Assembly: GCA_018296165.2 (NCBI GenBank)
Contig: JACKQL020000033.1
Location: forward strand, 372,001 to 436,000
Length of the DNA: 64,000 nt
Direction of reading: 5' to 3'
Source: Termitomyces sp. T153
Lineage: Eukaryota > Basidiomycota > Agaricomycetes > Agaricales > Lyophyllaceae
Shown here one piece after another: positions 8,938 to 48,179 of the stretch. The position numbers and the translations under genes are program-made. The stretch's first letter is position 1. Each line of letters starts with the position of its first letter. The notes under the pieces were generated by a model. That model made no database searches. It was not told the origin of the DNA and worked only from the letters and a program-made list of their open reading frames with translations.

Positions 8938-9757
8938 CACTTCAGGAAATGTAGTGTGTTTCCTGAGAAAAAGGTGTCAGAAATATGTTTTTCAATTTCT
9001 GACACCTTTTTCTCAAGGAACATGCTAAATTTTGTGTCAGAAAATTTCAATAAATATATTGAATATTCTCTTAATGCTTCTTTCATAGAATGATAAATTT
9101 TTCTGTGTTTTTCCCAAAGAAAAAATCCTCAAAATATTTGAAATGTTCTTGATGATTTTCTTGAGAAACACATGATATATTTTAGCACGTGTTTCTCAAA
9201 AAACCTTTGTCCTGTTCTTAGTTTGTATCTCAAGAAACACTCTGTATTCTTCTCAAGAAACACGCAATAAAAAAAATGTAATAATATTATATAGAAACAA
9301 TATACAGAACCATGTGTTGCATCACTCAGCATGCGACTGTCAATTCACTCATCAAGATGCTTAATACATACTACTGAGTTGGTAACATAGTGTACAAAAT
9401 TATAGACTTCCAAGAAACTCCAAGAAACAGATGAACAATAGCTGAAGTCAAGAAAAATGAGGGCTAAATCAGCAGGACAGACAGGGCATCAACTTACAAG
9501 GAAAATCACCAAAATCAATTTGATCTACAAGCCTCTCAAATTTGAATTTGCCAGCTGTGGACAGCATGCAGAATGCTATATGGTTGGTAATGAGCAGATC
9601 AAGATTTTGTGCAGCCCAAGCACTGCGCAACTACCTGGGATGGCATGGTTGTGCATGTCTGGTTGACTCTTGATTGGTTGGATGGCATCATTGAGGGGGG
9701 TTCATCAACAACAATGAGTTCCTATGTCTGGTTGAGGATCAGTTGATCACTGTTGCA
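8938..9757 (+). repeat. Left terminal/subterminal inverted region of the CACTA element
   Basis: It matches 47411-48179 in reverse complement, including the terminal CACTT, a perfect 20-bp stem hairpin at 8965-9014, several TTTCT-CAAGAAAC palindromes between about 9000 and 9260, and an open frame at 9457-9666. The counterpart of that frame is 47500-47709 minus, with about nine in ten residues alike. Differences are mostly transitions, so the two ends are not recent copies of one another. Confidence 0.8.
8965..9014. repeat. Perfect 20-bp-stem hairpin near left terminus
   Basis: The arms 8965-8984 and 8995-9014 are exact reverse complements (core GGTGTCAGAAAT) around a 10-base loop. The same structure occurs in the right terminus at about 48103-48152 with one mismatch. 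It may be a transposase-binding or end-recognition site. Confidence 0.85.
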
Positions 9758-10088
9758 CTCCAGTTTGACAATACAAGACAGAGACTCACATGCCTGAAGC
9801 TTGTTAATTCTGTGTAGTCATAGAAAAATCTCAACACTGACCTGTGACAGATGGATGGAAATGGTGGACCCTAGGCAGATGTTATCATACAGAATCTCAA
9901 AATTAGGCATCATGGTCAGCTCTGTGCTGGTGTATTTGAGCTGAAAGATTGGCATTGTGATGGGGTTATGAGAAAGAATGTGCATGCATTTGTAATCATT
10001 TGGCTACCCTAACTTTAGATTAGATTTATTTGCCTCAAGCCTTGGTAAATCCTGGCCAGTTTCTTCCTTACTCTGAGCACTTCTCTCA

Positions 10089-12560
10089 TCATGCAGTCCA
10101 CCTTGGAATCTGGTGGGCACCTCTAAAACACTTGGGCAGATCACAAGCTACAGTGCACTTGGCATTGATAGCAAGTCCATAGCAAACACAAACTGCTTGT
10201 GGAATGATTCTGTTTTGACCAGCAATTTGAACATGTCTTGTATCGCAATGACGATTATATGTACTCTCTAAAACCAAGACAGCCACAATCTCAATCAAAG
10301 TACCAGTTTGGACAACAACACACCTGAAAATGACTATCCTGGAATTCAATAGAACTTCTCTGGAGCAGAGAGCTAAAGGTATGCATAGGGGAGTCAGTGA
10401 TGGTCTCTTGAGAGTGCATGGCAAGTGCTGGAGCATGTGGCATATATACAGGACTTGTCAGCTGCACTAAGAAAAGTGCAGCATCTAGGCTTGTCAGCTG
10501 TTCATTTGTGGTATTTGCATTTGACCACTGGGTCAGTACTCCATGTCTATGCTTCGCTGCAGGGGCCCTGTTGGAGAAGTGAAATCTGGACTCGCAAGTT
10601 TGTCCTTGCCTACAGAATCTAATGCACAAGAAGATGTGTAATTTTCCAAAATTTGAGGAATAGAAGTGTAAAACAAACTTGTGGGACACATGGAAAAGAT
10701 AGGCAGAAATTGAGATGTGGATGGGATATAGAGGGACACAGACCACCTTGGTGAGATGAGTTCTGGCAGAGAAGGCAGAAGCTGATTGTTCTCCTGGATG
10801 ATGGGGATGTCAAGTGTGAATGACATGGGGTTGAGTGGTGGGATGAGTAATGCTGCAGATTTTCCCACTTTTGACTTAGCAAGACAATCTGAAGGTCTTA
10901 GGTCAGCATCAATGTAAAAATGAGAGAGAGTAGCATTTACCAATGGCCTCATACACACTATTTGCATCACTCGCAGACAACACTGTTGATGTCTTCAATG
11001 TCTTTCAATTTCCATTGAAAATCCTATCTGTGAATGATGCTGATCTTCTAACACCTAAGCTCTTTTTGGGAGACAACACCAGCCACCCAATGCCTGGACC
11101 ATTGAAAAATCCATTCTTGTTCTCAATTTCACTACCATTCTCCACTGGCATAGAAATGACTGACCAATCCTCTGACATTTCCAACAATGCAGACACACTG
11201 TCTCAGGGTTGGGAACTACTCATCAATGAGGTTTTCAAGGAACTCACAAAACACTTGAGGCTAGTAAAATACTGCAAAGATCTAGGAGATGTCTATACAG
11301 GGGACTTGATCTCTGCATCCCATGCCATGGCATCAGCTGGCACAACCTCTTTTTCTGGTATTGGAGTAATTGCTAAGGGGTGGATGTGCTTTGAAAGAAA
11401 GGCAGTTCAGGCAGCGGGTGAAAGGAGAGGGTCACAAATTTCTCTTTGTGGGCCTCACTGTCTGCTGACTCGTCCCATCTCTGCACTGACTTGCTCCTGA
11501 GGAGCAGGTTGCAGAAGATGCTTTTTGACTTGCTCACTATTGCTTCCTGCTTTGCATGAGCCTTAGCCATGGTAGCATGCTTCTTCTTTTCTTTCTCAGC
11601 CTTGACAACTGGCTGCTTCTCCCTTTCCTCTCCCCCCTTCATTTCCCCTTGTCTTTCCTTCTTCTCCAGCTCAACACCTGCCTTCTTTGCACCCTCACTG
11701 GGCAACTCTCCATGCTCCAATGAGAATTCTAGTAATCTCATGTACTTTGCCAAATTCAGAGACTTCTGGCTTGGGAGTAGGCAGGAAGTACTCAAGCTTG
11801 TTAGGTGTAGTGCCAGATCTTTGAGATTTGGGGGTAGGTACAGTGGTGGATGTAATGCAGGTTGCAAGGTGGCTTGGGCTCACTGCAAACAGCTTGCTGG
11901 ACATGCATTCCCACCTTGTGGAGAGGTGAACATTTCAGTAGGTTTGGTGATGGATGAAGTCATGGGGACATGTGTGGTCAGTTTTGGTACAGCAGGAGTA
12001 GCCTCAGATTGGGTATTGAGTTTTAGTTTTAGATCAGGTATGAATTTTATAGTATTCATTGAGATCTTTGGTTCTTGGGATGTTGAAGGAGTTTCAATAA
12101 CTGGTGGTCAGTATAATGGAGGGGCAGCAAGAGGAGAAATCTGCCCCAGGAACATGTCTTGAAGATTTGCAATAACCTTTCACCACCATTACAGGCCACA
12201 TCCAAATTTGGCATTGACACAATGTGTTCCATATCAAATGGTGACCCAGCATGGCCAACACCAGGAATTCAACTTGCAGCTCATATGCCCAATATACAAT
12301 TCCCATACAACTCACTGCACATCTTCTGTGGCGCATTTTCAGCTATGGGTGGTGCACCAAGTCCAAAACTGCCTCTAGGGACCAGTACACTGCCCTTCTT
12401 TTCAAACTTTGCTATCTTGTCATGCAGACAGGCCAAGTTGGGCACCGCACCAGGTGTAAGTGGTATTGAGGGCTATGACAGGTGGTTGGAAGTTGCCAGT
12501 GCAGCATTTTGCTGCTACAAGGCAGCTATCTGCTCCTTGAGGTTGCCCAGCTGTAGTTGA
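10089..12560 (-). pseudogene. Decayed gene with Lys/Glu-rich coiled coil
   Basis: Discontinuous minus-strand coding sequence. The best pieces are 12300-12555 (a Gln/Leu-rich helix followed by a Gly-Ser-Phe-Gly-Leu-Gly-Ala-Pro-Pro motif) and 11373-11867. The latter has a highly charged Glu/Lys stretch at about residues 55-105, containing Glu-Leu-Glu-Lys-Lys-Glu and Glu-Lys-Lys-Lys. Further Ser/Pro-rich pieces follow at 11005-11196 and 10533-10970. The pieces are in different frames with stops between them, so the gene is dead. The charged helix resembles generic coiled coils such as the KER region of CAF-1 large subunits, but no diagnostic motif supports that. Probably cargo of the CACTA element. 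Confidence 0.4.
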
Positions 12561-12738
12561 CTCTTGGAGTTCCTGTTGGTGAGGTCAGTGTTGCATACAA
12601 CAAGGAAGAGGACATGTTCGCTGACATTTTCAGTTCTAAAAGAGTGTTGGATGTGCTACAAGCCAGTCAGCGACTGTAGATATCAGGGTAACAGAAGATC
12701 TAACTTCAAGTGAAGCGATGAATGGAAGTGGCACACAC

Positions 12739-12764
12739 ACTTCAGGAAATGTAGCATGTTTCCT
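12739..12764 (+). repeat. Orphan CACTA-terminus-like sequence
   Basis: CACTTCAGGAAATGTAG followed by catgtttcct matches the first 27 or so bases of the giant element's left end. It abuts, at 12765, the inverted copy of TOM1-like exon sequence. It is not flanked by a matching second terminus that I can find. Confidence 0.7.
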
Positions 12765-13040
12765 GTGAAGATGCTTGACCATGAGTTCTGCAATGGTTGC
12801 CAATGTTTTGGTGACCTGGGCTTGTGGTAAATTGAGAAACAGAAAAGAATTAAAAGCTTAGATTAATAAACTTATGCAAAATGACAAAAGGCACAATCTT
12901 TCACTACAGATTACATTGCACAATTCTCAATGTTCAATACAATTAACTAGTTTTTCCCTCTCTTGTCCTTTTTATCAGCCTGTGGTATATGAGAAAACTG
13001 AAGAAATATAAACGAAAAGAGAATTGACCTTCCAGCAATC

Positions 13041-13563
13041 ATGCCTGTCATAAATCCCCTCCTCCCCATCAATCTCCCTAATCACCTTCACACTCCAAGA
13101 GACCCAGACACACTTGATCCAGTCAGTACATTTGTTCCCCTTTACTTGACTGAAGCATTACTCACTGATGGCAAGGCATTTGACAAATATCCCATTGCCT
13201 CGAGTTCCCTTCAAAAGTGTGCCCTCCAACACTTCTCCCACAAATGAGCCATGAACTTCATGGCATGAACCTCATTGGTGGATCAAATGCACATGTTGGT
13301 GTTGCACTGGATAGAGGCCTAGAATTGAATCAAAAGATACTCAAAGTGAAAGACCATATGCAAATCCATTGGCTCTTCTCCAGCTCAAGGATGGGGTACC
13401 CTTCAAGTCAAGACTTGCTCAGGTGAAGGACAGGGCAGCACATCAGGATCTTGAAGGACTTGGCATGCCTTGGCATATTGACAGTGTAGATGATGCTAGA
13501 GAAGTGTTAAGTAAGTCAAAAGAAGGAAATAGAATGACTTACTTGTCAGAGCTGGTGGTTTGA
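13041..13563 (+). pseudogene. Unrecognised duplicated coding relic
   Basis: Three short frames on the plus strand (13041-13247, 13217-13426, 13369-13563) look like one protein broken by two frameshifts. The first begins Met-Pro-Val-Ile-Asn-Pro; the last contains Gln-Val-Lys-Asp-Arg-Ala-Ala-His. No family is recognised. An identical set lies inverted at 40067-40589, including the same frameshifts, so the breaks predate the duplication. Confidence 0.4.
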
Positions 13564-13906
13564 GTGAAGGAGATGGTCAAGGAACCAGACACCTTAAATA
13601 TGACAGAGCAATGGGGTCTTCTGAAGAATTAGAACTTGGAATATTATCCCAGAGCTCAGACAATCATAAGAGTGAGTGAGTTTGGGTGAACCCAGGTGTC
13701 ATGAGTAAGGGATAAAGCTTGGGTGAACCCAAAGCTCATCAATGGTGGTATCCAAAACACAGAAGAGACTGTCTTGTTCCCAAGGCACCTTACAGGTGTA
13801 CATCAAGCCCCATGCCTTGAAAGTCACTCAGCAAAGGAGGAAATTTGAGAGTTGGGGCTCCCAAACCCAAAACTTGAGAGGGAGTGTGAGTGAGTTTGGA
13901 TGTATC

Positions 13907-15096
13907 TGTCACGACCCGTTCCCCAAAACCCCGCACATCGTCCATCAAACCCCCAAACCCCCAAAAGGACCCCCAACGCTCCGCCAAACTTCCGCCCATG
14001 CCCCGCGCCTACTTCGGCTAACTCCGACGCCTCCCCAGCTAACTCCGACGGCCCCCTGGCCAACTTCGGTGCCTGCCCCGCAGCCACTGACACTTACCCT
14101 GGGCTTCCCAAACCCCGAGAACCACCCCCGCTATTCCTAATCTTCGCCACCCATCATTAACTCAACACCCTGCTTCCTCCGACCTATTCTGGAGTATCAC
14201 GACAACCTCGGGGCAACCCGCGTTCTCCAATGATCCCATCAACGTATCAGCGCGGCACGATCTTCGATCACAACCGACACCCGCCCACTCCGTCAAGCCC
14301 CGCCAAGCCCCGCCGCCACAGCCGACGTACCCCGAAGTCCTCCGGTAGTCAGTATATAAGTCATCGAGTAGCTCTTCGTACTCCAGTCTTGATATTGCTT
14401 AACGTTACCTATGGTCTGATTGTTTCCTTTTCGTGTTTCGTGTTTCGTGTCCCATTCTCCTTACTCTCAGTCTCCCGGTCTTATCTCAGTCTCCCGGTCT
14501 TATCTCAGTCTCCCGATCTTATCTCAGTCTCCTGGTCTTATCTCAGTCTCCCGGTCTTGTCTTGTCTCCATTTCGTTATCGTTCTCGTTATTGTTTCGTA
14601 TCTCCACTTGAATCTACTCCTGCTCCATATTGTCTCGTCCGACGCTGTCTCGGTGACTCCGTCAGACCATTGTGCCCAAGTCTTCATCAACCCTAACGAC
14701 CTCACGAACTCCGCGATTACAATTACAAACCCCGACACTCCTTTACCAGGTCCGAACCTCACTCTTCGCTCGGTCCCGGACTCCATCAGCTCCAAATGAT
14801 CTCCCATCAAACCCCGGCTCCATCCCCATCAATCACACAGCCACCTACTCCCTTGCTTCCGTGAATCTCCCGTACGGCCTTCTGCCTGAACCCCGCCAAG
14901 ACCGTCTCGTTTCCCCACAATCCGACTTCTCCGGACCTTCCCGGATCTGTCTGGATCACATCTCCCCAACTACCCGCGCAACCCACCCAGACCCGGAATG
15001 TCTTTGAGTGTTTGGTTACCAATGCAGGGGAATCACACCCGCCTAGTAAGGACTCGCCCAGTGCAGCTGAGCCCCCGGGGTCAGCGGAACCTGACA
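13907..15096 (+). repeat. 5' LTR
   Basis: TG...CA-bounded LTR. A TATATAAG box lies at 14353-14360. Five 19-bp CT-rich units (CAGTCTCCCGGTCTTATCT type) lie at about 14468-14562, downstream of the box. No convincing tRNA primer-binding site was found immediately downstream of 15096. Confidence 0.93.
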
Positions 15097-17506
15097 TAAT
15101 ATCAAGACTCTACCTTACCCCGCCTGTGATGCCCGCATTATCTCCGCACACACGATCAAATAACTCTGATGTCTATGGTCTACCCGTGCCGGGGAACCCT
15201 TATAATTCATACGGCCCCGCCCAATTTGCCGAGGCACATTGAATCACGGATCCGACACCCAATGTCCCCTCTGCTCCGGTTACATCCATACAACGGCTCC
15301 CTCCCATGGACACCATCCCAACTCACACCCAACTCCCAACCCCTCGCGCAAACCGTCAAATCGTCGTCCACCTCACTCTTACACTCTCCGCCAACTCCGC
15401 TCTCTCACGCAAAATTGACCCCGACATCACCCAAAGAATAACATCCTAAAGCCTGGCGACCCTCCGATCAAATGAGCAACAATGTCTCCGGCACCGCGCC
15501 AACCCTCCGACCAACGATAATGCCAACCCGCCACGGAACAGTTGCCGACTGCACAAGGATTGCCAGCCATGAAGAGACCACTGAGAACGTGCTTCCCTGG
15601 AAGCCCCCCTGTGGATCCACCAACCCACCAGCAACCAAGAACCTCAGACCTAGGCTAGGCTCCAACCCTGACCTGCTTCCGGACCTCGATCGATCGGCCG
15701 TCACCTCCACCCAACAAATGAAGGGGCCCCGACTTCCCCGACCCGACTCCGACAACCCCGGAACAAGACCAAAACATCCCCGAGCCTCTAGACATTAATA
15801 AGGAGAACCACGGCACCCCACTCTCGACAAGGGACAACTCCGGACCACGCCGCTAGTTCACCACCCTCCTCCACACAATCCGGAGCCCCCGACAATGAGG
15901 ACCCTGGACGCCAAAACCCCCCCCCGCATGCCACCCCCGAGTTTAAACTCCACCCCCAGACTACGCTACCTCCCACAAAGGAATCCCCAGCATAGGAGCC
16001 ACCCCGAACTGACTATAGGAAAAAGGACCCTATACGAAGTAGTTCCCTAAGTACTCCAAATTCGCTGACATGTTCATATAAGGGAGGGAGAAGCCCCACC
16101 ATTATCCAGAAAACGACGATGGGCCGTTAAGGCAACCCGACGGCCCAAAGGGCGCGCGCTCCGATATCCTCAAAGAACCTCCCCCACCTGGCTCGACAAT
16201 CCAAACAACCCCACGCCAGCCCAAAACTGTCCCACTCAGGGCCCTCCGAACCCTTCAACACAGCTCCGGACCCTGGTGACATGGCTCCAGGGCCTCCGCT
16301 CCGACCACGACATTTGACCAAGAAAACTCACGGCGCCAGCTCGACAATGATGCCCTGGTAGCCCCAACCCCACGACAAAAATCACCACCCACCCCGAATC
16401 CCGTCCCTACACTGGAATATGTCTGCCGAACAGGGACCACATCATTGGAGCCTCCAGAAAAGCGGGCAGTGCCTCTCCCCACTGCCACCCCCACACTTAC
16501 AACAATCTCCGGGCCGCTCCGGAACACGAATGAAGAGCAGCCTCGACCCTGCCGCATCTCCCGGGGAACCCTACTCCAGTGCCTCCCCGCGGCCGACCTC
16601 CCCGCCGCCCCAACAACCGTGAACAACCAACAAATCCCCACCGAGTGACCCTTGGGTCGACTCCGGGACCACCCACTTCCTCCCTGATGAAGGAACTACC
16701 GACCCCCGGACCTCTGAACTCGAGGAAGTATCAGAAATACGTAAGACCCCCTTTGTCCGCCTCGGGCTTACCTTTGGTTAGGAAAGCAATATCATGTAGA
16801 TGATCCGGCACCCCAAATTTCGGCCCCGGACCCGAAGGAACTGGTTGGGACTGATCACCCCGCATCCTACCCCCTCGGTCATCGACACTCCGGAGCACAC
16901 CAAAGCGCCAACCGAAGCATGCCCGCCCACAGACGCAACACTCCGGAACACAACCCCGACCCGGACCAACTATACCGCGAGGACAAACCTCGCCTCACCC
17001 AACCCCACCAATGAAAAATGCCCCGCCGCCCTCGCCACCAATGCCAGCATAAGGGCCAGACCGTGGGGAGACCCCCATTACCCCCCGCCAACCCCACGGC
17101 CAAGGCAATTAAAGCCCCGAACCTGTTGGGCACCGTGAAAAAATTCGAAGGCCCACCCTCCACTACCAATATGGCGCACGTCCCCTACAACCCCAGTCAG
17201 AATTTCCGAGAATCGAACTCAACGACACCGCCTGAAATGCCGGGGACCCCCACCGGAGAACTCCCACCACCCCCGCCAGACCTCGAGGGCCCTCCTGCGA
17301 TGCCCCGCCCCATCCCGACAAACCCCGGGACTAGCCAGCGCAGACGGCACTAGCGGGCGTAACCCCCGCCTCTGGACTTACTAGGGATTCAACTCCCTCT
17401 CACACCCCTGCGGACCAAGAAAACACATGTTTGCGTACAAAAAAAATTTGTTCTATATACAATAGGCGGGGAAAGCAGCAAGTCCGAGAGCGACAAGAAA
17501 CAAGGC
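15097..17506. other. Internal region of LTR element, no recognisable protein
   Basis: Very C-rich on the plus strand with frequent CpG. Open frames exist on both strands but give Pro/Gly/Arg-rich translations without domain motifs. I find no gag zinc knuckle and no pol motif. Confidence 0.6.
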
Positions 17507-17517
17507 TCACACCCATC

Positions 17518-18648
17518 TCACTCCCTCCCCGGACCCCCCGGCAACCCAACCCCCAGGTCGACCTCCATCTGGGCCCGCACCACCGCTAGGATCTCCGCCA
17601 ACCCCGGCAATGCCTCCCCCGCGTCGGCCGCCACCTCCCACCACGATCCCGGGGCCACCGCATTGCGCCGCCGATGCCCCGCCAGCAACCTCTCCAACCG
17701 CGCCATCCCCTGCTGCAACTCCGGAGGCTGGACTGCGGACCCCTGCGTCAACCCGTCCTGAATCGATGCGAACGCTGCGGAGGCACCGTCCAAGAGGACC
17801 CGATGCTCCCACACCCAGCCTAAACTCAGAAAATGAACCGTCAATAACAAACGGAGGAACGGGAGACAACTCACGAAGGATCCCCGCGCGACCCAAGGCG
17901 GCCTCGTTGGCCAACCAATCCTCCCTCCGCCTCGCCGCCTCCAGCTCCGCCCACAACGCATCCCCCTCCGGAACTTGTCCCCGCCCCTCCGCTTCCCCCG
18001 CGGGCTGCCCCTCCACCTGCGCCAGACGCTCCCGCAAACCCCGCACCTCTAGCGCTCGCTCCGTCGCCACGCACACCGAAGTATTCCTCTCCCGCTCCAT
18101 CACTTCCTTCTCCGTCCGCGCCACGTCACGATCCTCCCTCGCCCGTCGGAGCTCACCCTCCCATACTGCCAACGATGTCGTGAAGGCCTCCACCTGCTTG
18201 CGAAGGAAGACCTCCGTGATTGAAGGAATCGGCATGGGGGGACTTGACGACCGCTCCGAGGGGACGCCCGGGACAGGAGAAAAGAGGGAGGACTCCGGAG
18301 GCCCCGCTGACAACTCACGCCCACGTGGCCTCTTGCTGGGTCCCGCCCCCGAGGGCGGGGAAGCTCGACACTTCCCCCGAACCACCGCCGAGGACGCCCC
18401 CTTCCCCTTTGGCACTGCGGGACGAAACTTGGTCCGCTTCGGAACCCCCGGAAAATCCACCACTACTACTACGGACGATTCTACAGGAACCCCATCAACC
18501 ATCCCAAAAGGAAAAGTCAACAACACTTATGACTCCGGTCCCTAACGCTACCCCGGCACCGACGCTCGAACTCCTCACCCCCACTGTCATACACCACCAC
18601 CTCGTCTAAATCGGCGGGAGAAACCACTGGAACGCTGGGGGAAGACAT
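17518..18648 (-). CDS. Antisense spliced gene in the LTR element
   Basis: Transcribed opposite to the retrotransposon. The predicted start ATG is at 18648-18646. The first exon encodes an acidic segment with Val-Val-Tyr-Asp-Ser-Gly-Gly-Glu-Glu-Phe-Glu. The second exon (from about 18475 to 17875) holds a basic Ser/Pro region and a long Arg/Glu-rich coiled coil (Arg-Arg-Ala-Arg-Glu-Asp-Arg-Asp-Val-Ala). A GT-AG intron at 17874-17820 (55 bp) is followed by a last exon with Trp-Glu-His-Arg-Val-Leu-Leu-Asp-Gly and a conserved Gly-Ser-Trp-Trp-Glu-Val-Ala-Ala-Asp, ending at 17518. The intron-1 donor here reads ATAAGT, whereas the relative at 46905 keeps GTGAGT; the change fits a CpG transition. The coiled-coil/WWEVAADxG architecture is familiar from repetitive Agaricomycete proteins of unknown role. 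Function unknown. Confidence 0.65.
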
Positions 18649-18845
18649 GACGAAATTTGGGAAACCCCGGGGCACGCCCAAAGCTTTTAATTGATTGAGG
18701 AGGACCCTGACGAAACGGCGGCCGCGCTTCGACTTTGTCTCCCACGCCGCTATCACTCGCTGCGGATTGATCAATATTGCTCGGCTTTGACTCCCACGCC
18801 CCGCCGATCCCCGTCCTGCCCCGCGTCTCGAAGGGTCTCGACGCT

Positions 18846-18858
18846 GAAAGGGGGGTGA
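18846..18858 (+). promoter_or_regulatory. Polypurine tract of LTR element
   Basis: GAAAGGGGGGTGA immediately precedes the 3' LTR start at 18859, the expected position of the plus-strand primer. The reverse complement of the same tract adjoins the truncated relative at 46576. Confidence 0.85.
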
Positions 18859-20038: not shown

Positions 20039-20339
20039 GTATCCAGAACTCATGAGGGAAGGATAGAGCTTAGGGGAACTGAGTTCAACTCCAGTCCTAC
20101 TTCAATGGAGTTTGATGATTATGTAATTCACCCATGGAAAACACAATGAGCATTGAGTGAGTGGGTGTGATCTGTGAGCAATATATTGGAAAAATAGATC
20201 TTCAAGGTAGCATCATGGTGATATGGATGCTTTAGTCCATCAAGGCTATGCCATAGAGAGATCCTTAAGATCACTCAGCACAACAGGAGTCTGAGTTGAG
20301 GCAAGAACTAGAACCAAGTGATCACAAGTTTGGGTTGGA

Positions 20340-37110: not shown

Positions 37111-37223
37111 CAACAAACTGTCTCTGACTTTGCTGATGGAAGACCTTATCGCACTGGAAAACAGAAAGAAAATTTGCCTGACCCATCAATGCCAGTTGAC
37201 TACTGAGTAAATTCATACTATCT

Positions 37224-38985
37224 TTGATTATCAAATATCTGACTTGTTCTTTTCTCAAGCTATTCGGAATGAGACCCCATTCTTTGCCATTCAGATCATG
37301 TGCATTGTCTCAATCAGTTGCCTCCCATACTTGTGGGACTGTCAGAACTTCTCTTGCCAATGATTCAATGTGTTCACCTCACATTTCAAGCGAGGTTCTT
37401 GATGACCATCTACTGCTTTGAAACCAAATGATTCACTTGAGTCCTGCTTGGCAAGTGCAGCAATCACAGACCTCTCAGAAGTTTTCAATGCCATCCTACA
37501 TGTCACCTGGTCCTTGTTCTGAGAGTGTTTGCTCATCACCTATGATTGTGACTCCTTCAAAAAAGTCCAAGCAATGCAACTGTGATGATTTCATATGGAC
37601 AGACAGGCTTCCTAGAACTGGTCAATTGAATTACCAGCCCACTTTGTTGCCCAAGATTAATGAAGAACTGGTTCTCACCCCTTCTGCTCACCTTCACAAC
37701 TCTTTTTGATCATCTACCACTCCTCAAACGGCAAAGAGTTCAAGACTTTGAGAGACCAGAGAGGATGACAAGAGCACTTCTTCAAATGATGCAACTCAGC
37801 CATCTGTCTATTTCACTAGGAGACTCCAAGGTGGGGCTGCTAGTGATAATGGTGGTGGCAGTAACATTGAAGATGAAGAAGACTACAACAAAGACAACAA
37901 AGACAATGATGACAGCATTGTCTATGACAGTGATGACATTGGACCTACTCTTAGAAGACTGAAGGATGAAGTCCTGGCCTTACACAGGGATTTTGATGTA
38001 ACCACACAGTGTTTTGGTGAGCCCAGACATAGAAAAGCATTGGTGCAGTGGACATTCCCTTTCAAAGTACCACAAGGCCAAGAAGTATGAACTGAACAGC
38101 ACAATGATACCATGCGCATTGTCCAGAAAGAGATGTGGTCCCTCCTTGGAATTAAGAAGGATAGGGAATTCCCAAATATTGTCTCAGAAAGACCAGAGCT
38201 ACTGGCCATACCCTGGGACATGTTCAATTTTTGTTTCGATGATGATGCTCCTGGACTGAACCTCCAGCACCCACAGATTGATATCAAGGCTCCTGAAAAT
38301 ATATGGAATGTCTTACTTGCTCAGCAATTTGCTGACATGGTGATGCAGAAGTATCCTGAGAAGGACCTGTCTATAGACATAGTTGCATGACATTTCCTCA
38401 ATCATCTTGACACTCTTCAGAAGGCTTGTGCAAAGGCCTGTCCAAGGGCCAATGAACAGCCAGAGGACATTCTTGTACACATGACAGCTGAGTTTCAAGC
38501 TATGAGTCACCGTAAGTGAGTTAGGATGAGACAGAAACAAGTATGTGTATCCTTTCTCCATCTTTTCATTGGCTAACTAGCACATTCAAGCTATACCTCG
38601 CAAGAAGTGGTCATTGTCAAGACCAAGTTGAATATGATAATAATCTGGCTTGGAACAAGATGCTTCTCATGGTTAGATTTCTAAGAGTGGATGGCCAGAG
38701 TTCAGATGAGTCTGATGGTGGAGAATATAGAGTCAAAATTCAAACTTGGCATGATCCACACGTTACCAGACTGCTTTGCTACATAGACCAAAGTCATCTT
38801 ACCACTAAAATCCTTGGAAATTGACTCCCTGGTAGTGCTCCTTGTATCCATCAAATCAGTGAACACAAAGAGACTACACATCTTTACAGTGACATTCCTG
38901 CAAAGCTTCCTGCAAACTTCTATAACAAGGTGTAGTTTGAGACTCTGGTTCCTGGATTGCAAACCAAGTTGGACCCTCACCCAGT
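37224..38985 (+). pseudogene. Decayed Agaricomycete family gene (DGxSSDESD motif)
   Basis: Fragments in changing frames. 37830-38000 encodes an acidic Asp/Glu/Asn tract with Ile-Val-Tyr-Asp-Ser-Asp-Asp. 38112-38390 has Met-Trp-Ser-Leu-Leu-Gly-Ile-Lys-Lys and a helical segment ending Lys-Asp-Leu-Ser-Ile-Asp. 38543-38824 has the hallmark Val-Asp-Gly-Gln-Ser-Ser-Asp-Glu-Ser-Asp followed by Tyr-Arg-Val-Lys. I recognise the hallmark and its context from a widespread Agaricomycete family of unknown function. It may be the 3' half of the 34159-37110 gene. Stops at about 38390 and elsewhere show that it is broken. Confidence 0.5.
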
Positions 38986-39020: not shown

Positions 39021-40865
39021 GATACATATAGTCTGGCAGATGATAGTAGTCTTGTTTGCACTTACTGTCTGTCAGTTACAGATGTCATTACTATGATAGT
39101 TTGGCTCTCAAATAAATCAATTTTGTTCAAATTTATCATTTCTGATACTCAACCATTGTCCCTACAAAAATGTAGTCTTTGTCACTCAACACACTCATAC
39201 ATAAACTTATCTATGATTCTGCTTATTGCTGATCATGTTCCCATGATGGGTTATGTAAGAATCAAACACCAGTCAAGTCAGACTTTGACTTGTTGAAAAC
39301 AACCATGAGCTCTGGGTTCACCCAAGCTCTGTCCCTCCCTCATGAGTCCTGGGTTCACCCAAGCTCATTGAATTCTGTATCACTTCTGAGTTCATCCAAA
39401 CTCTACCACTGCCTGTGAAGTTCTGGGTCCAACCCAAACTTGTGATCACTTGGTTCTAGTTCTTGCCTCAACTCAGACTCCTGTTGTGCTGAGTGATCTT
39501 AAGGATCTCTCTATGGCATAGCCTTGATGGACTAAAGCATCCATATCACCATGATGCTACCTTGAAGATCTATTTTTCCAATATATTGCTCACAGATCAC
39601 ACCCACTCACTCAATGCTCATTGTGTTTTCCATGGGTGAATTACATAATCATCAAACTCCATTGAAGTAGGACTGGAGTTGAACTCAGTTCCCCTAAGCT
39701 CTATCCTTCCCTCATGAGTTCTGGATACATCCAAACTCACTCACACTCCCTCTCAAGTTTTGGGTTTGGGAGCCCCAACTCTCAAATTTCCTCCTTTGCT
39801 GAGTGACCTTCAAGGCATGGGGCTTGATGTACACCTGCAAGGTGCCTTGGGAACAAGACAGTCTCTTCTGTGTGTTGGATACCACCATTGATGAGCTTTG
39901 GGTTCACCCAAGCTTTATCCCTTACTCATGACACCTGGGTTCACCCAAACTCACTCACTCTTATGATTGTCTGAGCTCTGGGATAATATTCCAAGTTCTA
40001 ATTCTTCAGAAGACCCCATTGCTCTGTCATATTTAAGGTGTCTGGTTCCTTGACCATCTCCTTCACTCAAACCACCAGCTCTGACAAGTAAGTCATTCTA
40101 TTTCCTTCTTTTGACTTACTTAACACTTCTCTAGCATCATCTACACTGTCAATATGCCAAGGCATGCCAAGTCCTTCAAGATCCTGATGTGCTGCCCTGT
40201 CCTTCACCTGAGCAAGTCTTGACTTGAAGGGTACCCCATCCTTGAGCTGGAGAAGAGCCAATGGATTTGCATATGGTCTTTCACTTTGAGTATCTTTTGA
40301 TTCAATTCTAGGCCTCTATCCAGTGCAACACCAACATGTGCATTTGATCCACCAATGAGGTTCATGCCATGAAGTTCATGGCTCATTTGTGGGAGAAGTG
40401 TTGGAGGGCACACTTTTGAAGGGAACTCGAGGCAATGGGATATTTGTCAAATGCCTTGCCATCAGTGAGTAATGCTTCAGTCAAGTAAAGGGGAACAAAT
40501 GTACTGACTGGATCAAGTGTGTCTGGGTCTCTTGGAGTGTGAAGGTGATTAGGGAGATTGATGGGGAGGAGGGGATTTATGACAGGCATGATTGCTGGAA
40601 GGTCAATTCTCTTTTCGTTTATATTTCTTCAGTTTTCTCATATACCACAGGCTGATAAAAAGGACAAGAGAGGGAAAAACTAGTTAATTGTATTGAACAT
40701 TGAGAATTGTGCAATGTAATCTGTAGTGAAAGATTGTGCCTTTTGTCATTTTGCATAAGTTTATTAATCTAAGCTTTTAATTCTTTTCTGTTTCTCAATT
40801 TACCACAAGCCCAGGTCACCAAAACATTGGCAACCATTGCAGAACTCATGGTCAAGCATCTTCAC
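39021..40865 (+). repeat. Right arm of inverted duplication, with empty LTR site
   Basis: Reverse complement of 12765-13906 joined to 20044-20747. It retains the uninterrupted target of the LTR element at about 39710-39735, where GATAC (reverse of GTATC) occurs once. About ten palindromic GGGTTCACCCAA-type motifs are spread over 39300-39990. At its right edge it runs without a break into the TOM1-like exon, so this arm is likely the source copy. Confidence 0.92.
40067..40589 (-). pseudogene. Unrecognised duplicated coding relic (source copy)
   Basis: The minus-strand counterpart of 13041-13563, with identical translations in all three overlapping frames and the same frameshifts. Function unknown. 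Confidence 0.4.
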
Positions 40866-43610
40866 GTGAAGGGTTTTGATGAGTACTCCCAGTGACTACT
40901 TCAGGTTTGATCTGATACTTTGTTATTAGATGATATACCTTCGTTTGTATATTACAGTCTTGTGTTGGGTGTCTATAGTGCCTTGCTTGTCAATGGTGAA
41001 TTGTTTTCACACGCTTGTTCCAGTCTTCTCTGATAGCTCGATTTCACATTGCAGAAAGAACCACATCTCAAATACTGAACACAATTGAACACCTTGCTTT
41101 CTACAAAGCAGGCAGGTTTGAGACCATCCTGGATACTTGTCAGGCCTTGATGGGTTCAATCGAAAGGATTATGGAAGTGAGCGAGGAAGAGAAAACTAAG
41201 CCCAAGGCTGTTGAACACAATGCTGCATTCACTGCACTCAAAGTGGCTCTACATTTTGTCCAACCAATCATCTCCTCAAAACCCCTTATCGAGTTGGGGC
41301 AGACATCTCTCCTCATCACTCGTAACAAAAAGGACACTGACCCTGAATATTACAAGCTTCACAACTTTCTGGTCAGGCTGCGGATGGCAGTCCTTCCTCT
41401 TATGAAAGCACTTTGGAGTGCCCCCTGGTTAATTTCTGTTCCTCTGCAAGGCAATCATCAAAACAGTCCTTGAACTCGTGAATGGAGAAGGTGAAGAGAT
41501 AAAAACTGCATGCTTGTGGCCCAGGTGGCATGGAAACAATCCATCTCGAGGTCACTGCAGGGGCTGTCATCAACCTTGATTGAGGATTTCTCTAGCATTG
41601 TAGGGTTACACAGGGGAGATTTTCCACCGCTATTCAAGTTGAGCCCCTATCTGGACCCAGCAATCAAGTTAGTCGTGAGCTGGATCCGCTTCTCACTGGG
41701 CAACAGTGGGCACATGAAGACAACATTGGTCATGGAGATTTTGTAGCTGAAAGATTAACGAGGCTCATGAAACATATCGTCTTGGCATTGTTACCATCAG
41801 CTGTGGAAGCAATCAAACGAAACAAGGAGAAAAAGGAAGAGGAAATGTTGGGAGGGGAAGTGGTTGAAGTTCAGGAGAAGGTTGAACTGGAAGACAAGGC
41901 CACTAATTTGGCTCAAGCAGAAGAAGAGAAACTGCTTTCCGAGGCAGCTGCAGATGCAGAAGCTTTGGGTAACACCCAATCAACTAGTGACACTCCTGTT
42001 GTGGCAACACAGATCACTCGAGATGAAGCAATGGACGATGCGATAACTACTGCCTCAACCAATACCAATGCTGATATGGTCGACGCCGTTGCCGACCATG
42101 TTGGGACTTCTGCTGATGCAAGCCCCTCAGTGAGCCCTCAATACAGTCAGCTGAATCAGCTGCTCCAGTAGCGGCTAAGCGAGTCATGGTTTTAATCCAT
42201 GGTAGTACAGTTGATATTACAGACACTGGCATCGACCCTACTTTTTTGGAAGCCCTGCCTGACGACATGAGGGAAGAGGTTCTGAGTCAACACGTTCGCG
42301 ACCAACGTGCTGCCAGGGTGGAACGCCCTGCTGACTCACAGATTATCTCTGAATCTCTCGATGCTTTACCTCCAGAAATAAGTGCCAAAATCATACAGCA
42401 AGAAGCTGCACAAAGGGCTCGTGTGCCTAACAGTGGGGGGCCAGTAGAGATTGACAACGCTAGTTTTCTTGCCAGACTTGATCCAACATTGCGCCAGACT
42501 GTCCTCATGGCACAAGGTGAAGGATTCATCCAAACTCTTCCATCTCATATCTTTGCAGAGGCTGGGGCCTACTGCGAAAATTAGGAACATTTGCATCGGC
42601 TTGCTATACGAGACGCAGCAATTCGGGGCCCCTCTATTCCCGCCCATGTAACCCGGAAGCTCGTACACCAGCATGACGACATCCAACTGTTGGACAAAGC
42701 CGAAGTTGCTGAACTTGTCCAGCTTTTGTTCTTCCCTCAGGTTTCGAAGAAGACCCTTCTGTACAGAATCCTTGTTAATCTCTGTGAAAATGCCAGTACC
42801 TGAACAGAATTATTTAACCTCCTTCTGAGCATCTTACAAGATGGAGCTGGAGATCTCGCTGCTGTCGATAAGGGTTTTGCACAAATGTCCGTGCGGAACA
42901 CCAAATCTCCAATCGTCAAGGCTCCAGGAAAGCAAAAGGCAATATTGGATTATCTATCGGCATTGGTGTTGAACTCACAAAGTGAAATCATACCAGACCT
43001 CGTGGTACAACGATACATTGAGGCACTGACATTCATTGTTAGCTCGAATGAACTGTCTACCCTTTTCTTCTTGATTGAACATGAATTCCCTATTGGTCTA
43101 CGTCGATCTGCCTCGAAAAAAGGTCAAGGCAAAGACAAACAGGCGCCACAAACTCATTATCCAATTAATCTGTTGCTTGGACTGTCGGAACGCTGATCAC
43201 TTCTCAAAACACCTGTTATAATGGAAACTGTTGTTGGCCTGCTTGCCACAGTAACTCGACCTCTCGCAAGCCTCAAAGATAAATGTTCAGATGCAGATCT
43301 TCGCGCCTCGACTCCGAATGGTTCCACAATAGATACAGAAGCAATGCGAAAACGGAAAGTATATGTACCACAGCACCTGAACGAAACACCGTAGTCAAGC
43401 AGCCGGCGACTGACAGTTCAACAACTCGTAAGTTATGTTAGTAATGGTTTGAATTTCTGACTCACATTTGACAAGGCGAGACTAATCCCGGAACGAACAC
43501 CCAACCCTCCATCGAAGCAGTGGAAGAAAAAATTCTTCTAGCCGATCCGCCGCAAATACCTCACACTGTGCTGCGTTTCGTCGTCAATATACTGACAATT
43601 GGGGAATTTT
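40812..43610 (+). pseudogene. TOM1/HUWE1-like HECT E3 ligase fragment
   Basis: Central part of a giant HECT-type ubiquitin ligase. Visible pieces are Glu-Leu-Met-Val-Lys-His-Leu near 40840-40865; 41015-41473 with Phe-Tyr-Lys-Ala-Gly-Arg-Phe-Glu-Thr; a charged region at 41767-42171 (Lys/Glu-rich); 42186-42584 with the conserved Asp-Pro-Thr-Phe-Leu-Glu-Ala-Leu-Pro-Asp-Asp-Met-Arg-Glu-Glu-Val and Leu-Pro-Pro-Glu-Ile stretch of the ubiquitin-binding region; 42591-43196; and Pro-His-Thr-Val-Leu-Arg-Phe-Val-Val-Asn near 43580. The N-terminal armadillo-like region and the C-terminal HECT catalytic domain are absent. Frameshifts occur near 41455 and 42175 and stops near 42580 and 43195. CpG is retained, so the capture is younger than the surrounding sequence. 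No ligase activity is possible from this fragment. Confidence 0.82.
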
Positions 43611-44338
43611 CAGGTCAAACATTCCCACACCTCGAACGCCACCCAGACCTCCAGTAGGGTACACAATCTTTGTCGAGCGGTATGCTTGGCATTGGAGGTG
43701 CAGCTTCGTGGCGCGGGTGGAGAGGATAAATGCAGAGATAACGATTACCTTACCCCATGGCCATCGTATGTCATTCTACTTGCTCAGTTTTGTGGCTGAC
43801 TTTTGATACAGGCTTCGTACGATAGCCCTGAATATGTGGCCGATCTTTCGAGCAGACCTATAAGCTCTTCACATCTGACGCTATCGACTTTTTGAATGGT
43901 AGATTTCCCGGCTGTTTCAAATGACTATGTTTGTGATGTTTGTGGTGCTTGGGTTCCCCCCATTACCGCCATTGCCACCGTTTCCGCCTGAGGTGTACCA
44001 ATTGTTGTATCTGTAGTGGTTGTAGTATCCCCGCTGGATATGGGGTGGGGTTAATATTGGTAGGAATGAGGATTGGGATTGTGACGAACCGGGACAATGT
44101 CGTTGTTGTTGTTGGAGGCGGCAGCGGGTAAAGCTGTGATAAGTTTTACATGAGCAACGAGAGTGGTGAGCACCGCAAGGGAGAATTTCGATGTTGGTGA
44201 GAGGTGGGTTTAGTCTTGAAGTTGAATGAGTTGTGTTGGGTAGGTGGAAGCTGATGTTTGGTGTTGAACTGGGGACGTGACTATCGCGTGTCACTTGTCA
44301 TGCGACGCGACGCGTCATTGATTGTTTTGTTTTCTGTC
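43611..44338. other. Spacer between captured TOM1 and Chk1 fragments
   Basis: CpG-containing, with no recognised gene. A minus-strand frame (43917-44294) encodes Gly-Gly-Asn repeats and is probably low complexity. The part just upstream of 44339 may be the original Chk1 promoter region. Confidence 0.45.
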
Positions 44339-45454
44339 ATGAGCAGCAAGTATCCAGCAGTCATCGGCTACATGCTCGTCAACCAAATTGGCGGCAGCAG
44401 GTTCTCCACGTACGTATGTCACAACAAACACACACAATCCCTCATTTCCCTCCAGCATATTCCACGCCGTCAACTTTTCAACGCACCTCATTGCCGCCTG
44501 CAAGCTCATCAAATTCACCCCTGCCACCACCCCCGCCGCCTGCAAATCCACTGAGAAGGAAATGCGCATCCACTCCGTCCTCAAGCACCCCCACATCCTC
44601 GAGTTTCTCAACGCCGTCATGGTCGAGACCAAACATGCGCACTTGTACGTGCCGGGGATCTACATGCTGATGGAGCTCGCGGGCAGCGGTGATCTGTTTG
44701 ACAAAATCGGTGTGTTGCTTGGCTAGGCATACGCACTTCATTCATGTGTCTGCTCAAAGTCCCAGATGTGGGAATCAAAGATGACGTAGTGCACCTCTAC
44801 TTCAACCAGCTGCTTTCTGGCATGGTTCATCGATGTTTTTCTTATTGTCTCTACTCACTCGCTCGTAGGACTACATACGCTCCCAAGGCATGTGCCACCG
44901 CAACCTCAAGCCCGAAAATCTCCTCCTCGACGCCACAGACAACCTCAAAATATCAGACTTTGGTCTCTCAGCCATGTACAAGCTCAAAGAAAGTGGCCGC
45001 ATGCGTGCCCTCACCAAACACTGTGGGAGCCTACCATACATGGCCCCCGAGGTGCGCATCAATGTTGTGTTTTGTTGTCTTAATATGCAAGACAACTGCA
45101 GCTCAATTTGGACGAACCATACAGCGCCAAACCTATTGATTTATGGGGCATCGGCACCATTCTATATGCTATGCTCACAGGCAGTACATCTGCTTCTCTG
45201 CTTATCTTCATTCTTTCCTAACCTCTGCACAGACACACCCTGGGACGAACCAACCACTGCCAGCCCCAAATTCACCCGCTACATCTCCGGTTCTATAGTT
45301 GACGAGCAGCTCTGGTCACGCTTCACCACAGAAGCCCTGTATATGTCCCATCCTCAAAGAAAAAAATTAATGTTCACCCCATCTGTGCACAGCACTCATA
45401 TGTGGCCTCCTAACCATTGACCCACATAACAGACTCACCCTCACAGATGCATTT

Positions 45455-46971
45455 TGTCAGGTTCTGCTGACCTCGGGGGCTCAGCTGCACTGGGCGAGTC
45501 CTTACTAGGCGGGTGTGATTCCCCTGCATTGGTAACTGAACACTCGAAGACGTTCCAGGCCCTGGTGGCTTGCGTGGGTAGCTGGGGAGATGTGATCCAG
45601 ACAGATCCGGGAAGGTCCGGAGAAGTCGGATCGTGGGGAAACGAGACGGTCTTGGTGGGGTTCAGGCAGAAGGCCGTATGGGAGATTTGTGGAAGCAAGG
45701 GAGTAGGTGGCTGTGTGATTAATGGGAACGGGGCCGGGGTTTGATGGGAGATCATTTGGAGCTGATGGGGTCTGGGACCGAGCGAAGAGTGAGGTTCGGA
45801 CCTGGTAAAGGAGTGTCGGGGTTCGTAATCGTAATCACGGAGTTTGTGAGGTCGTTAGAGTTGATGAGGACTTGGGCACAACGGTCGGACGGAGTCACCG
45901 AGACAGCGTCAGACGAAATGGAATGGGGTTGATATGGAACAAGAGTAGATTCGGGTAGAGATACGAAATGATAATGAGAACAATAACAAAATGGAGACAA
46001 GACAAGACCGGGAGACTGAGATAAGACCGGGAGACTGAGATAAGGAAACGAGACACGAGACACAAAACAATCAGACCATAAGTAACGTTAAGCAATATCA
46101 AGACTAGGGTACGAAGAGCTACTCGATGACTTATATACTGACTACCGGAGGACTTCGGGGTACGTCGGCTGTGGCGGCGGGGCTTGGCGGAGCTCGACGG
46201 AGGGGGCGGGTGTCGGTTGTGATCGAGGATCGTGCCATGCTGATATGTTGATGGGATCATTGGAGAACGCGGGTTGCTCCGAGGTTGTCATGATACTCCG
46301 GAATAGGTCAGGGTGTTTAGTTGATGATGGGGTAGCGAAGATCAGAAACAGTGGGGGTGGTTCTCGGGGTTCGGGAGGCCCAGGGTAAGTGTCAGTGGCT
46401 GCAGGGCAGGCACCAAAGTTGGCCAGGGGGCCATCGGAGTTAGCCGGGGAGGCGTCGGAGTTAGCCGAAGTAGGCGCGGGGCATGGGCGGAAGTTTGGCG
46501 GAGCGTTGGGGGTCCCTTTGGGGGTTCGGGGGGTTGATGGACGATGTGCGGGGTTTCGGGGAACGGGTCATGACATCACCCCCCTTTCAGCGTCAAGACC
46601 CTTTGAGACGCGGGGGCAGGGCGGGGATCAGCGGGGCATGGGAGTCAAAGCCGAGCAATATTGATCAATCCGCAGCGAGTGATAGTGGCGTGGGAGACGA
46701 AGTCAAAGCGCGGCCGCCGTTTTGTCAGGGTCCTCCTCAATCAATTAAAAGCTTTGGGCGTGCCCCGGGGTTTCCCAAATTTCGTCATGTCTTCCCCCAG
46801 TGTTCCAGTAGTCTCTCCCGCCGATTTGGACGAGGTGGTGGTGTATGACAGTGGGGGTGAGGAGTTTGAGCGTCGGCGCCGGGGTAGCGTCAGGGACCGG
46901 AGTCGTGAGTGTTGTCGACCTTTCTTTTCGGGATGATTGACGGGGCTCCCTTAGAGTCGTCCGTGGTAGTA
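45455..46971 (-). mobile_element. 5'-truncated LTR retroelement in Chk1 exon
   Basis: LTR 45455-46575 (reverse orientation, TGTCAGGTT to ATGACA), adjoining polypurine tract and about 395 bp of internal sequence up to 46971. The rest of the element and the second LTR are missing. A 5-bp CATTT lies on both sides (45450-45454, 46972-46976) and the kinase reading frame resumes exactly after it. Same family as 13907-20038. The LTR has only two of the 19-bp CT units. Confidence 0.88.
46787..46904 (+). pseudogene. First exon of the antisense retroelement gene
   Basis: ATG at 46787. The exon encodes the same acidic peptide (Val-Val-Tyr-Asp-Ser-Gly-Gly-Glu-Glu-Phe-Glu) as the 18648 gene, with about five residue differences. 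A consensus donor GTGAGT follows at 46905, which the other copy has lost. The rest of the gene is missing because the element is truncated at 46971. Confidence 0.65.
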
Positions 46972-47410
46972 CATTTCAGCATCCATGGTGTATCTGGTAC
47001 ATATGTGCCACTTCTCCACTTTCCCATCTTCCTCTTTGTACTCTACCATTTTTAATTTCTGCCTAATGTCTTATGGCTTACACACACTACTCAACAGCCC
47101 AAGCCAACTCGCTTCACAAACACCCTCTGTCCTCACAGAACAACTCACCACACCCCTCCATGCAAACAGTGACATGGCACTTGCAGTGCCTGATCTGCAT
47201 ATGAGTGGCCATAAAGATTGCAATGCTGATGCCAATGAGGATAAGGAAGGTGATGTGGATACCGACAAAGATGAACTGATGCTATCTGCACAGCTCTTGC
47301 AGTTCACACAATCATTAATGCTTTTTGTGTGTCTTTTGCTTTATCTACTAACCCCCAACTAATCACCCACTCCCCTCACAGTCCCAAACCCAGTTGGGCA
47401 CATGGTATTG

Positions 47411-48179
47411 CAACAACAACCAACTGATCCTCAACCAGACACAGGAACTCATTGTTGTTGATGAACCCCCCTTGACAATGCTGTCCAATCAATCAAGCAT
47501 CAACCAGACATGCACAATGATGCCATCCCAGGTAGTTGTGCAGTGCTTGGGCCACATAAAATCTCAATCTGCTCATTACTGACCATATAGCATTCTGCAT
47601 GCTGTCCACAGCTGGTGAATTTGAATTTGAGAGGCTTGTAGATTGGATTGATTTTGGTGATTTTCCTTGTAAGTCGATGTCCTGTCTGTCCTGCTGATTT
47701 AGCCCTCATTTTTCTTGACTTCAGCTGTTGTTTATCTGTTTCTTGGAGTTTTTTGGAAGTCTATAATTTTGTACACTATGTTACCAACTCAGTACTATGT
47801 ATTAAGCATCTTGATGAGTGAATCAATGGTCACACACTGAGTGACATGACACATGTTTCTGTATATTGTTTCTATATAATATTCTTACATTTTTTTATTG
47901 CATGTTTCTTGAGAAATATCATACATTATGCCAACATATGTTTCTCAAGAAAAATACAGAGTGTTTCTCGAGATACAAACTAAGAACAGGACAAAGGTTT
48001 TTTGAGAAACACAGAAAAATTTATCATTCTACAAAAGAAACATCAAGAGAATATTTGATATATTTATTGAAATTTTCTGACATAAAATTTAGCATGTTTC
48101 TTAAGAAAAAGGTGTCAGAAATTGAAAAACATATTTCTGACACCTTTTTCTCAGGAAACACACTACATTTCTTGAAGTG
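47411..48179 (-). repeat. Right terminal/subterminal inverted region of the CACTA element
   Basis: Reverse complement of 8938-9757. It contains the terminal AAGTG, the hairpin at about 48103-48152, the TTTCTTGAGAAAC-type palindromes, and a minus frame (47500-47709) matching 9457-9666. Its inner edge cuts into the captured Chk1 sequence near 47415. Confidence 0.8.

What the first reader, a model, noticed from the sequence alone, without database searches (positions are those of the whole stretch)
8938..48179. A 39-kb CACTA transposon carrying captured host genes
Seen: CACTT...AAGTG ends with about 0.8 kb inverted similarity, TAT on both sides, and a Tnp2 transposase relic inside. Known: CACTA elements have CACT-type ends, 3-bp duplications and Tnp2 enzymes. 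Inferred: the whole 39.2 kb, with WD40, coiled-coil, TOM1 and Chk1 fragments, moved or moves as one unit. A fungal CACTA element of this size with multi-gene intron-retaining cargo is not something I know to be described.
Basis: partly seen in the sequence, partly recalled or inferred. Interest (0 to 1): 0.9.

Follow-up and report, generated by a model that had tools for sequence, protein, structure and literature searches.

The report
Giant fungal jumping element carrying genes
A 39-kb stretch of a mushroom genome is one of about ten giant CACTA-type jumping elements that moved as whole units while carrying broken copies of the fungus's own genes, a habit well known in plants but which I did not find reported for such elements in fungi.

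Summary
8938-48179 is one insertion: CACTT...AAGTG ends, TAT on both sides, and 38 paralogous copies of the target repeat run through the join (5 read: one TAT). The terminal motif occurs 95 times (control 0), giving 12 facing pairs 15-44 kb apart; for 10, both are supported as outer ends. Of 8 giant pairs with both flanks read, 7 have identical 3-bp flanks. Empty sites were found for 5 of 6 tested. All 6 elements read share core DNA; Tnp2 matches lie in 10 of 12 pairs. Cargo differs: TOM1 and a Chk1-like kinase here, ARO1 in two others, NIC96 in another, with donor loci elsewhere. Shared capture junctions at different insertion sites show that cargo moved with the element. WD40 and coiled-coil pieces belong to the shared core, not to recent capture. 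TOM1 cargo is CpG-decayed and no complete undamaged transposase was seen, so recent activity is unproven. Host: probably Termitomyces (inferred). Verdict: a CACTA element, new variant.

The parts
8935..8937 (.). left copy of the 3-bp target duplication, TAT
   Evidence: the 5 empty sites read carry one TAT
8938..9757 (+). left terminal inverted repeat (about 0.82 kb matching the right end; the family-shared end region runs to about 10.0 kb)
8959..9260 (.). subterminal palindromic repeats TTTCTYRAGAAA (one mismatch allowed), 6 within 400 bp of the left end
12738..12765 (+). internal second copy of the terminal motif, directly abutting about 50 bp of TOM1-derived DNA
12765..13906 (.). inner inverted repeat, left arm, outer part (99.7% to the right arm)
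13907..20038 (.). LTR retrotransposon inserted later into the left inner arm; 5-bp duplication GTATC; the right arm is the uninterrupted copy
20039..20746 (.). inner inverted repeat, left arm, inner part (99.9% to 39021-39728)
21238..25030 (-). decayed Tnp2 (Transposase_21) gene, part of the shared core
26243..26641 (-). core frame whose sister copy matches WD40 repeats
30998..33369 (+). core gene relic; 24 database relatives, the named ones (561-844 aa) from Termitomyces, Tephrocybe, Lyophyllum and Panaeolus; no family in the local Pfam copy, but the database lists PF28437 for 6 of the 24
34765..38231 (+). further core frames (weak coiled-coil; a 345-aa frame in a sister copy with 84-86% relatives in Termitomyces sp. 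Mn162)
39021..40870 (.). inner inverted repeat, right arm (uninterrupted; its outer edge overlaps the first bases of the TOM1 piece)
40812..43629 (+). captured TOM1 fragment from donor C1:153469-159710, with a 3.4-kb internal deletion at 41505/41507 shared with the C120 element
43953..45450 (.). captured fragment matching C2:78579-80213 (88% and 81%): Chk1-like kinase exon (+) and, on the other strand, what I read as the start of a small secreted-type protein gene
45451..46971 (-). truncated copy of the LTR of the 13907-20038 element family; absent at the same place in C120
47409..48179 (-). right terminal inverted repeat with 6 subterminal repeats
48180..48182 (.). right copy of the 3-bp target duplication, TAT

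Best explanation
This is a giant CACTA (EnSpm) DNA transposon that inserted at this site as one unit. It is one member of a family in this genome (probably a Termitomyces). Shown: CACTT/AAGTG ends about 0.8 kb long with subterminal repeats, a 3-bp target duplication, paralogous empty target sites, a Tnp2 core, and host DNA carried between the core and the ends. Inferred: a Tnp2 transposase of the family bound the subterminal repeats, cut both outer ends and moved everything between them. Inferred: host DNA was taken in when breaks in the zone 1-7 kb inside the ends were repaired with host chromosomal sequence as template or filler; after that, transposition copied the cargo to new sites. Inferred: the fungus silenced the family by cytosine methylation, leaving CpG decay and stops. 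Later LTR insertions and exchange between the inner inverted repeats reshaped the copies.
For: Motif: 95 copies genome-wide against a control of 0, 12 giant facing pairs, 10 of them with both outer ends supported. Matching flanks in 8 of 8 giant pairs read: 7 with 3 bp, 1 with 4 bp. Empty sites for 5 of 6 elements tested, with 38 (window), 17 (C15), 13 (C3), 2 (C120) and 2 (C78b) spanning places among 40 scored places in each of the two calls. Shared core at about 90-93% in 6 of 6 elements read. Tnp2 PF02992 above its cut-off; 54 database relatives, 52 of them with PF02992; Tnp2 matches inside 10 of the 12 pairs. Subterminal motif 5-8 times per end and 0-1 elsewhere in each of 6 elements. Same cargo at different sites: the window cargo lies full length (91%) in the C78:9874-53882 element (TGA flanks) and partly in C120 (CTA flanks), with the same 3.4-kb deletion junction in window and C120. 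ARO1 sits in C15 (ACA) and C3 (CAT) with the same right junction. Donor loci with open frames: TOM1 721 aa without stops, ARO1 285 aa, NIC96 157 aa. Break-repair signature: about 39 bp of element sequence (90% alike) on both sides of the ARO1 insert in C15. CpG decay in TOM1: 28 of 68 CpG positions changed C>T/G>A against 40 of 626 other positions.
Against: No complete undamaged transposase was seen: of the 5 rows covering residues 1-593 of the query, only C16:656279 (the query itself) has no stop, and its gene is interrupted by stops further on. No spanning empty site was found for the C16 element. C29 has a 4-bp, not 3-bp, match. Two of the 12 pairs are not secured as outer pairs: C48:216129 is probably an inner copy of the motif, since end-region DNA lies 3.6 kb further out, and C16:195859 is known by the motif alone. 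C78b and C120 have no match to the 593-aa Tnp2 frame. The 39-bp duplication is seen in C15 only; in C3 the left junction has lost about 74 bp. The kinase and secreted-protein stretches show little or no CpG excess, and the kinase alignment at its donor contains stops. No strain comparison was available, so empty sites are paralogous. Whole donor genes were not read.
Confidence: 0.95

Rival explanations
1. Two separate small elements with the same ends flank unrelated chromosomal DNA, and the pairing is accidental.
For: 13 small pairs of 0.7-1.0 kb with the same terminal motif exist, and internal second motifs occur inside the giants.
Against: The flanks join in 38 paralogous copies, 5 of them read with a single TAT; 7 of 8 pairs have identical 3-bp flanks; interiors are homologous between 6 of 6 elements read.
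Confidence: 0.02
2. The element that moved was much smaller; most of the 39 kb, cargo included, accumulated in place after insertion.
For: The LTR element at 13907-20038 and the truncated LTR at 45451-46971 did arrive later.
Against: Core and cargo with the same unique junctions recur in elements at other sites with other target duplications. Only about 7.7 kb of LTR sequence is clearly later.
Confidence: 0.03
3. A refinement rather than a strict rival: a nested composite, in which an older element with the inner motif (window 12738) sits within a younger outer pair that mobilised it as cargo.
For: An inner copy of the 28-bp terminus followed by TOM1 DNA occurs in window, C3, C15 (both sides), C78b (both sides) and C120, 7 copies in 5 of 6 elements; inner repeats are 94-99.9% alike within an element while the outer repeats are 88-98%.
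Against: The sequence outside the inner motif is conserved (aggtggcacaca or close) and inverted, so no target duplication marks an inner insertion; C16 has no inner motif by this pattern.
Confidence: 0.25
4. Host gene pieces were captured by RNA-mediated copying rather than from chromosomal DNA.
For: None found.
Against: Intron-like sequence of TOM1 is retained and colinear; the kinase fragment includes non-coding sequence and part of a divergent neighbour.
Confidence: 0.02

Closest known systems
CACTA/EnSpm transposons with captured gene fragments in plants (wheat 3B, 140 capture events, PMC4290129, passages read; soybean Tgm-Express, PMC1947982, and soybean 20.5-kb element, PMC2613891, both search listing only)
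   Same: CACT-type ends, 3-bp duplications, Tnp2-type transposase, subterminal repeats, host gene fragments inside the element
   Different: Fungal host; 15-44 kb; terminal inverted repeats near 0.8-1.9 kb plus a second inner inverted repeat; cargo-bearing copies mostly also hold a (decayed) transposase gene
Enlarged 16-20 kb EnSpm families of the red alga Chondrus crispus (cited in PMC6431247, passage read)
   Same: CACTA enzymes in oversized elements with 4-5 ORFs
   Different: The passage mentions ORFs, not host gene fragments; these are up to 44 kb
Fungal EnSpm and Plavaka elements carrying TET/JBP genes (PMC12730594, passages read)
   Same: Fungal EnSpm there: 5'-CAC..GTG-3' ends and 3-bp duplications; an extra gene travels with the element
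   Different: Here the cargo is fragments of TOM1, kinase, ARO1 and NIC96 with identifiable donors; the Plavaka ends given there (TGT..ACA or CATCA..TGATG) differ
Starship elements (PMC12134995, abstract start in listing; Starships of 42-606 kb in the basidiomycete Tremella fuciformis, PMC13066641, passages read)
   Same: Giant cargo-carrying fungal transposons
   Different: Starships are defined by a tyrosine recombinase and carry accessory genes; this is a Tnp2 element with long inverted ends and broken gene pieces
Pleurotus Helitrons with captured genes (cited in PMC6431247, passage read)
   Same: Gene capture by a DNA transposon in an Agaricomycete
   Different: Different enzyme and ends; fungal Helitrons given there as up to 14 kb

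Membership tests
CACTA/EnSpm | CACT-type inverted termini | tested here: met
   11 of the 12 outer ends of the 6 elements read begin CACT; the C78b right end has a mutated first base
CACTA/EnSpm | 3-bp target duplication | tested here: met
   7 of 8 giant pairs read have an identical 3-bp flank; the eighth, C29, has 4 bp; single TAT in the 5 empty sites read
CACTA/EnSpm | Tnp2 (Transposase_21, PF02992) enzyme | tested here: met
   30.3 bits against a cut-off of 28.6 in a sister copy; the window copy is its homologue with 4 stops
CACTA/EnSpm | acidic catalytic triad with C(2)C and H(3-4)H motifs | tested here: inconclusive
   Aligned with 8 of the 54 relatives; conserved aspartates and a CxxC motif are visible across separate open frames, but the triad was not assigned formally
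CACTA/EnSpm | repeated subterminal motifs | tested here: met
   5-8 copies of TTTCTYRAGAAA (one mismatch allowed) within 400 bp of each end, 0-1 elsewhere, in 6 of 6 elements
CACTA/EnSpm | evidence of mobility as a unit | tested here: met
   Paralogous empty sites for 5 of 6 elements; past mobility only
Pack-TYPE (plant) | non-autonomous, no transposase gene inside | tested here: not met
   Tnp2 relics lie inside 10 of the 12 giant pairs, the window included
Pack-TYPE (plant) | captured host coding DNA between the ends | tested here: met
   TOM1, kinase, ARO1, NIC96
Plavaka | TGT..ACA or CATCA..TGATG ends (from PMC12730594) | tested here: not met
   Ends are CACTT..AAGTG
Starship | tyrosine-recombinase captain gene | not tested
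   No directed search for that family was made; the 30 frames scanned against Pfam did not match one
Polinton/Maverick | 6-bp target duplication (recalled) | tested here: not met
   3-bp duplications in 7 of 8 pairs

The most novel reading that the evidence does not exclude
Lyophyllaceae fungi host a lineage of CACTA elements that acts as a standing gene-capturing vehicle, a Tnp2-based counterpart of Starships. Host DNA from unlinked loci is taken in repeatedly by break repair in a hot zone just inside very long nested inverted ends. The cargo is spread by transposition and sometimes includes intact, expressed genes in populations.
Probability: 0.3. Interest if true: 0.85.

Novelty: new variant of a known kind. 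Interest (0 to 1): 0.68.

Why it matters
It shows that plant-style gene capture by CACTA elements also happened in a fungus, at up to 44 kb, more than once and from several loci. The copies preserve capture junctions, donors, empty sites and a range of donor-to-copy identities (about 81-97%). That makes the long-standing question of how DNA transposons pick up host genes directly testable in one genome. It also means Starships and Helitrons are not the only cargo carriers to look for in mushrooms.
Full report
What was checked. The window lies at C33:372001-436000 of an unnamed 72.4-Mb, 307-contig assembly.

One insertion. The target was a dispersed repeat. The two flanks were joined with a single TAT and searched in the genome. 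38 of the 40 scored places (of 1591 candidates) ran through the join; the other two were the window's own halves. Five of the 38 were read and aligned: each continues through AGTATGGTAT or a close variant with one TAT and no gap at the join. So the whole 39,242 bp lies where those copies have nothing.

A family. The left end alone gave 75 matches (40 of 79 candidates scored). The 23-bp terminal pattern with up to 2 mismatches gave 95 copies (49 +, 46 -); the reversed control gave 0. The 95 include inner copies of the motif: 7 in the six elements read. Taking outermost facing copies, there are 12 pairs 15-44 kb apart (C3, C15, C16 three times, C29, C33, C48, C72, C78 twice, C120) and 13 pairs 0.7-1.0 kb apart. 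Many other copies are single. For 10 of the 12 giant pairs both members are supported as outer ends by matches of the longer end region. At C48 the left motif is probably an inner copy, since end-region DNA lies 3.6 kb further out, and C16:195859 is known by the motif alone. C16:424725 and C16:673373 share the same right flank, so these two may be one insertion duplicated by a segmental or assembly duplication.

Target duplications and empty sites. Both flanks were read for 8 giant pairs: 7 have identical 3-bp flanks (CAT, ACA, CTG, TAT, TGA, CCA, CTA) and C29 has a 4-bp match. The C78b right end has its last G changed to T. Joined flanks of 5 further elements were searched. Spanning places were found for C15 (17), C3 (13), C120 (2) and C78b (2), and none for C16; the remaining 6 of the 40 scored places are single flanks. 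The C3 places cross the join by only about 85-91 bp, and the target copies were not read letter by letter.

Anatomy. Six elements were read in full (window, C3, C15, C16, C120, C78b). They share core sequence at about 90-93%. Each has 5-8 copies of TTTCTYRAGAAA (one mismatch allowed) within 400 bp of each end and 0-1 elsewhere; mononucleotide shuffles of the window's first 400 bp gave a mean of 0.016. The core holds a Tnp2 gene (PF02992, 30.3 bits, cut-off 28.6); 52 of its 54 listed database relatives carry PF02992 (where only the 7996 best candidates were scored). Matches to its 593-aa frame lie inside 10 of the 12 giant pairs, including 4 of the 6 elements read; C120 keeps only the DNA of the later part of the gene and C78b has none. 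On the other strand are frames of a protein with 24 listed relatives, the named ones from Termitomyces, Tephrocybe, Lyophyllum and Panaeolus, of unknown fold, and further frames with 84-86% relatives in Termitomyces sp. Mn162. These identities are why I think the host is a Termitomyces; that is an inference.

Outer inverted repeats are 88-98% alike within an element; a second, inner inverted repeat is 94-99.9% alike. Inner-arm copies in different elements are mostly 89-93% alike, which suggests exchange between the arms of one element; against this simple picture, a 0.3-kb stretch of the window arm is 97.8% like C16. An internal copy of the 28-bp terminus, directly joined to TOM1-derived DNA, occurs in window, C3, C15 (both sides), C78b (both sides) and C120, not in C16.

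Cargo of the window. 40812-43629 derives from TOM1. Its donor C1:153469-159710 has a 721-aa open frame with three ubiquitin-binding repeats, and the fragment matches yeast TOM1 at 5e-12. Relative to the donor, 3.4 kb is missing at 41505/41507; the C120 element has the same join, with identical letters around the break. 43953-45450 matches C2:78579-80213 (88% and 81%), a locus with a Chk1-like kinase (Chk1 at 1.4e-16 for the window copy) and what I read as the start of a small secreted-type protein gene. The kinase alignments at that donor contain stops when read without regard to introns, so that donor is less certain. The whole block recurs at 91% in the C78:9874-53882 element and partly in C120, C48, C4, C2 and C29. 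All 6 elements read contain some TOM1-derived DNA, from about 44 to 705 bp, so this capture predates their spread.

Other cargo. C15 and C3 carry a 1.7-kb piece of ARO1 (6.5e-70) from C122:39330-41054. Both share the right junction. In C15 the insert is flanked by about 39 bp of element sequence on both sides (90% alike); in C3 the left junction has lost about 74 bp, so the duplication is seen in one copy only. C16 carries NIC96 (PF04097 at 1.8e-24) at 97% to C2:1676477, next to DNA matching C121:65640-67365 at 94-96%. The captures mapped lie about 1.4-7.4 kb inside an end.

Decay. In captured TOM1, 28 of 68 CpG positions changed by C>T or G>A against 40 of 626 other positions changed in any way, and 12 of 32 against 22 of 310 in the second stretch; in C120 33 of 68 against 48 of 626, and 15 of 32 against 17 of 310. 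The kinase and secreted-protein stretches do not show a clear excess (3 of 26 against 5 of 92, and 3 of 24 against 33 of 219), which is a result against uniform decay. The two ARO1 stretches are short (4 of 16 against 6 of 135, and 2 of 6 against 0 of 94). These counts take the donor as the ancestral state. Many Tnp2 rows contain TGA stops.

How it most likely worked. Shown: insertion of the whole unit, and movement of cargo with it. Inferred: Tnp2 action at the outer ends, capture during break repair, methylation-linked decay. The membership tests place it in CACTA/EnSpm; the size, the double set of inverted repeats and the serial multi-locus cargo in a fungus are what is new to me. Gene capture by CACTA elements itself is established in plants (PMC4290129, passages read).

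Noticed in passing
13907-20038: A 6.1-kb LTR retrotransposon (LTRs 98.6% alike) sits in the left inner arm with a 5-bp GTATC duplication; the right arm 39021-40870 is its built-in empty site, so it probably arrived after the arms became alike.
   Followed up: partly
49455-52338 and 52399-55282: An exact 2,884-bp direct duplication outside the element, carrying reverse transcriptase and, overlapping its second copy, a frame with a DDE_1 piece. It could be very recent or an assembly artefact.
   Followed up: no
G000 C1, C3 (two), C6, C9, C11, C13, C14, C24, C45, C68, C82, C129: 13 pairs of the same 23-bp motif only 0.7-1.0 kb apart: a miniature subfamily, with no pair of intermediate size seen between 1 and 15 kb by this pattern.
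   Followed up: no
G000 C16:393459-424725 and C16:635834-673373; C273:11400: Two giant elements on C16 share the same right flank, and C273 carries the reverse complement of the C16:168649 left flank: segmental duplication, haplotigs or assembly duplication.
   Followed up: no
G000 C2:74509-81774: Three related copies of the stretch that I read as the start of a small secreted-type protein gene lie within about 7 kb, around the kinase donor.
   Followed up: no
30998-33369: The core protein without a fold match has 24 listed relatives and 26 invariant columns among 21 aligned; it may be a second transposition protein or an old host gene.
   Followed up: partly
8640-8937 and 48183-48482: The insertion target is a dispersed repeat with at least 38 further copies in the genome, itself unclassified.
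   Followed up: no
G000 C6:1131-6008 and C16:636984-641860: The NIC96-bearing cargo block is listed at 100% identity in C6 and C16, where the distances to the next right-hand motif differ; very recent movement, conversion or duplication.
   Followed up: no
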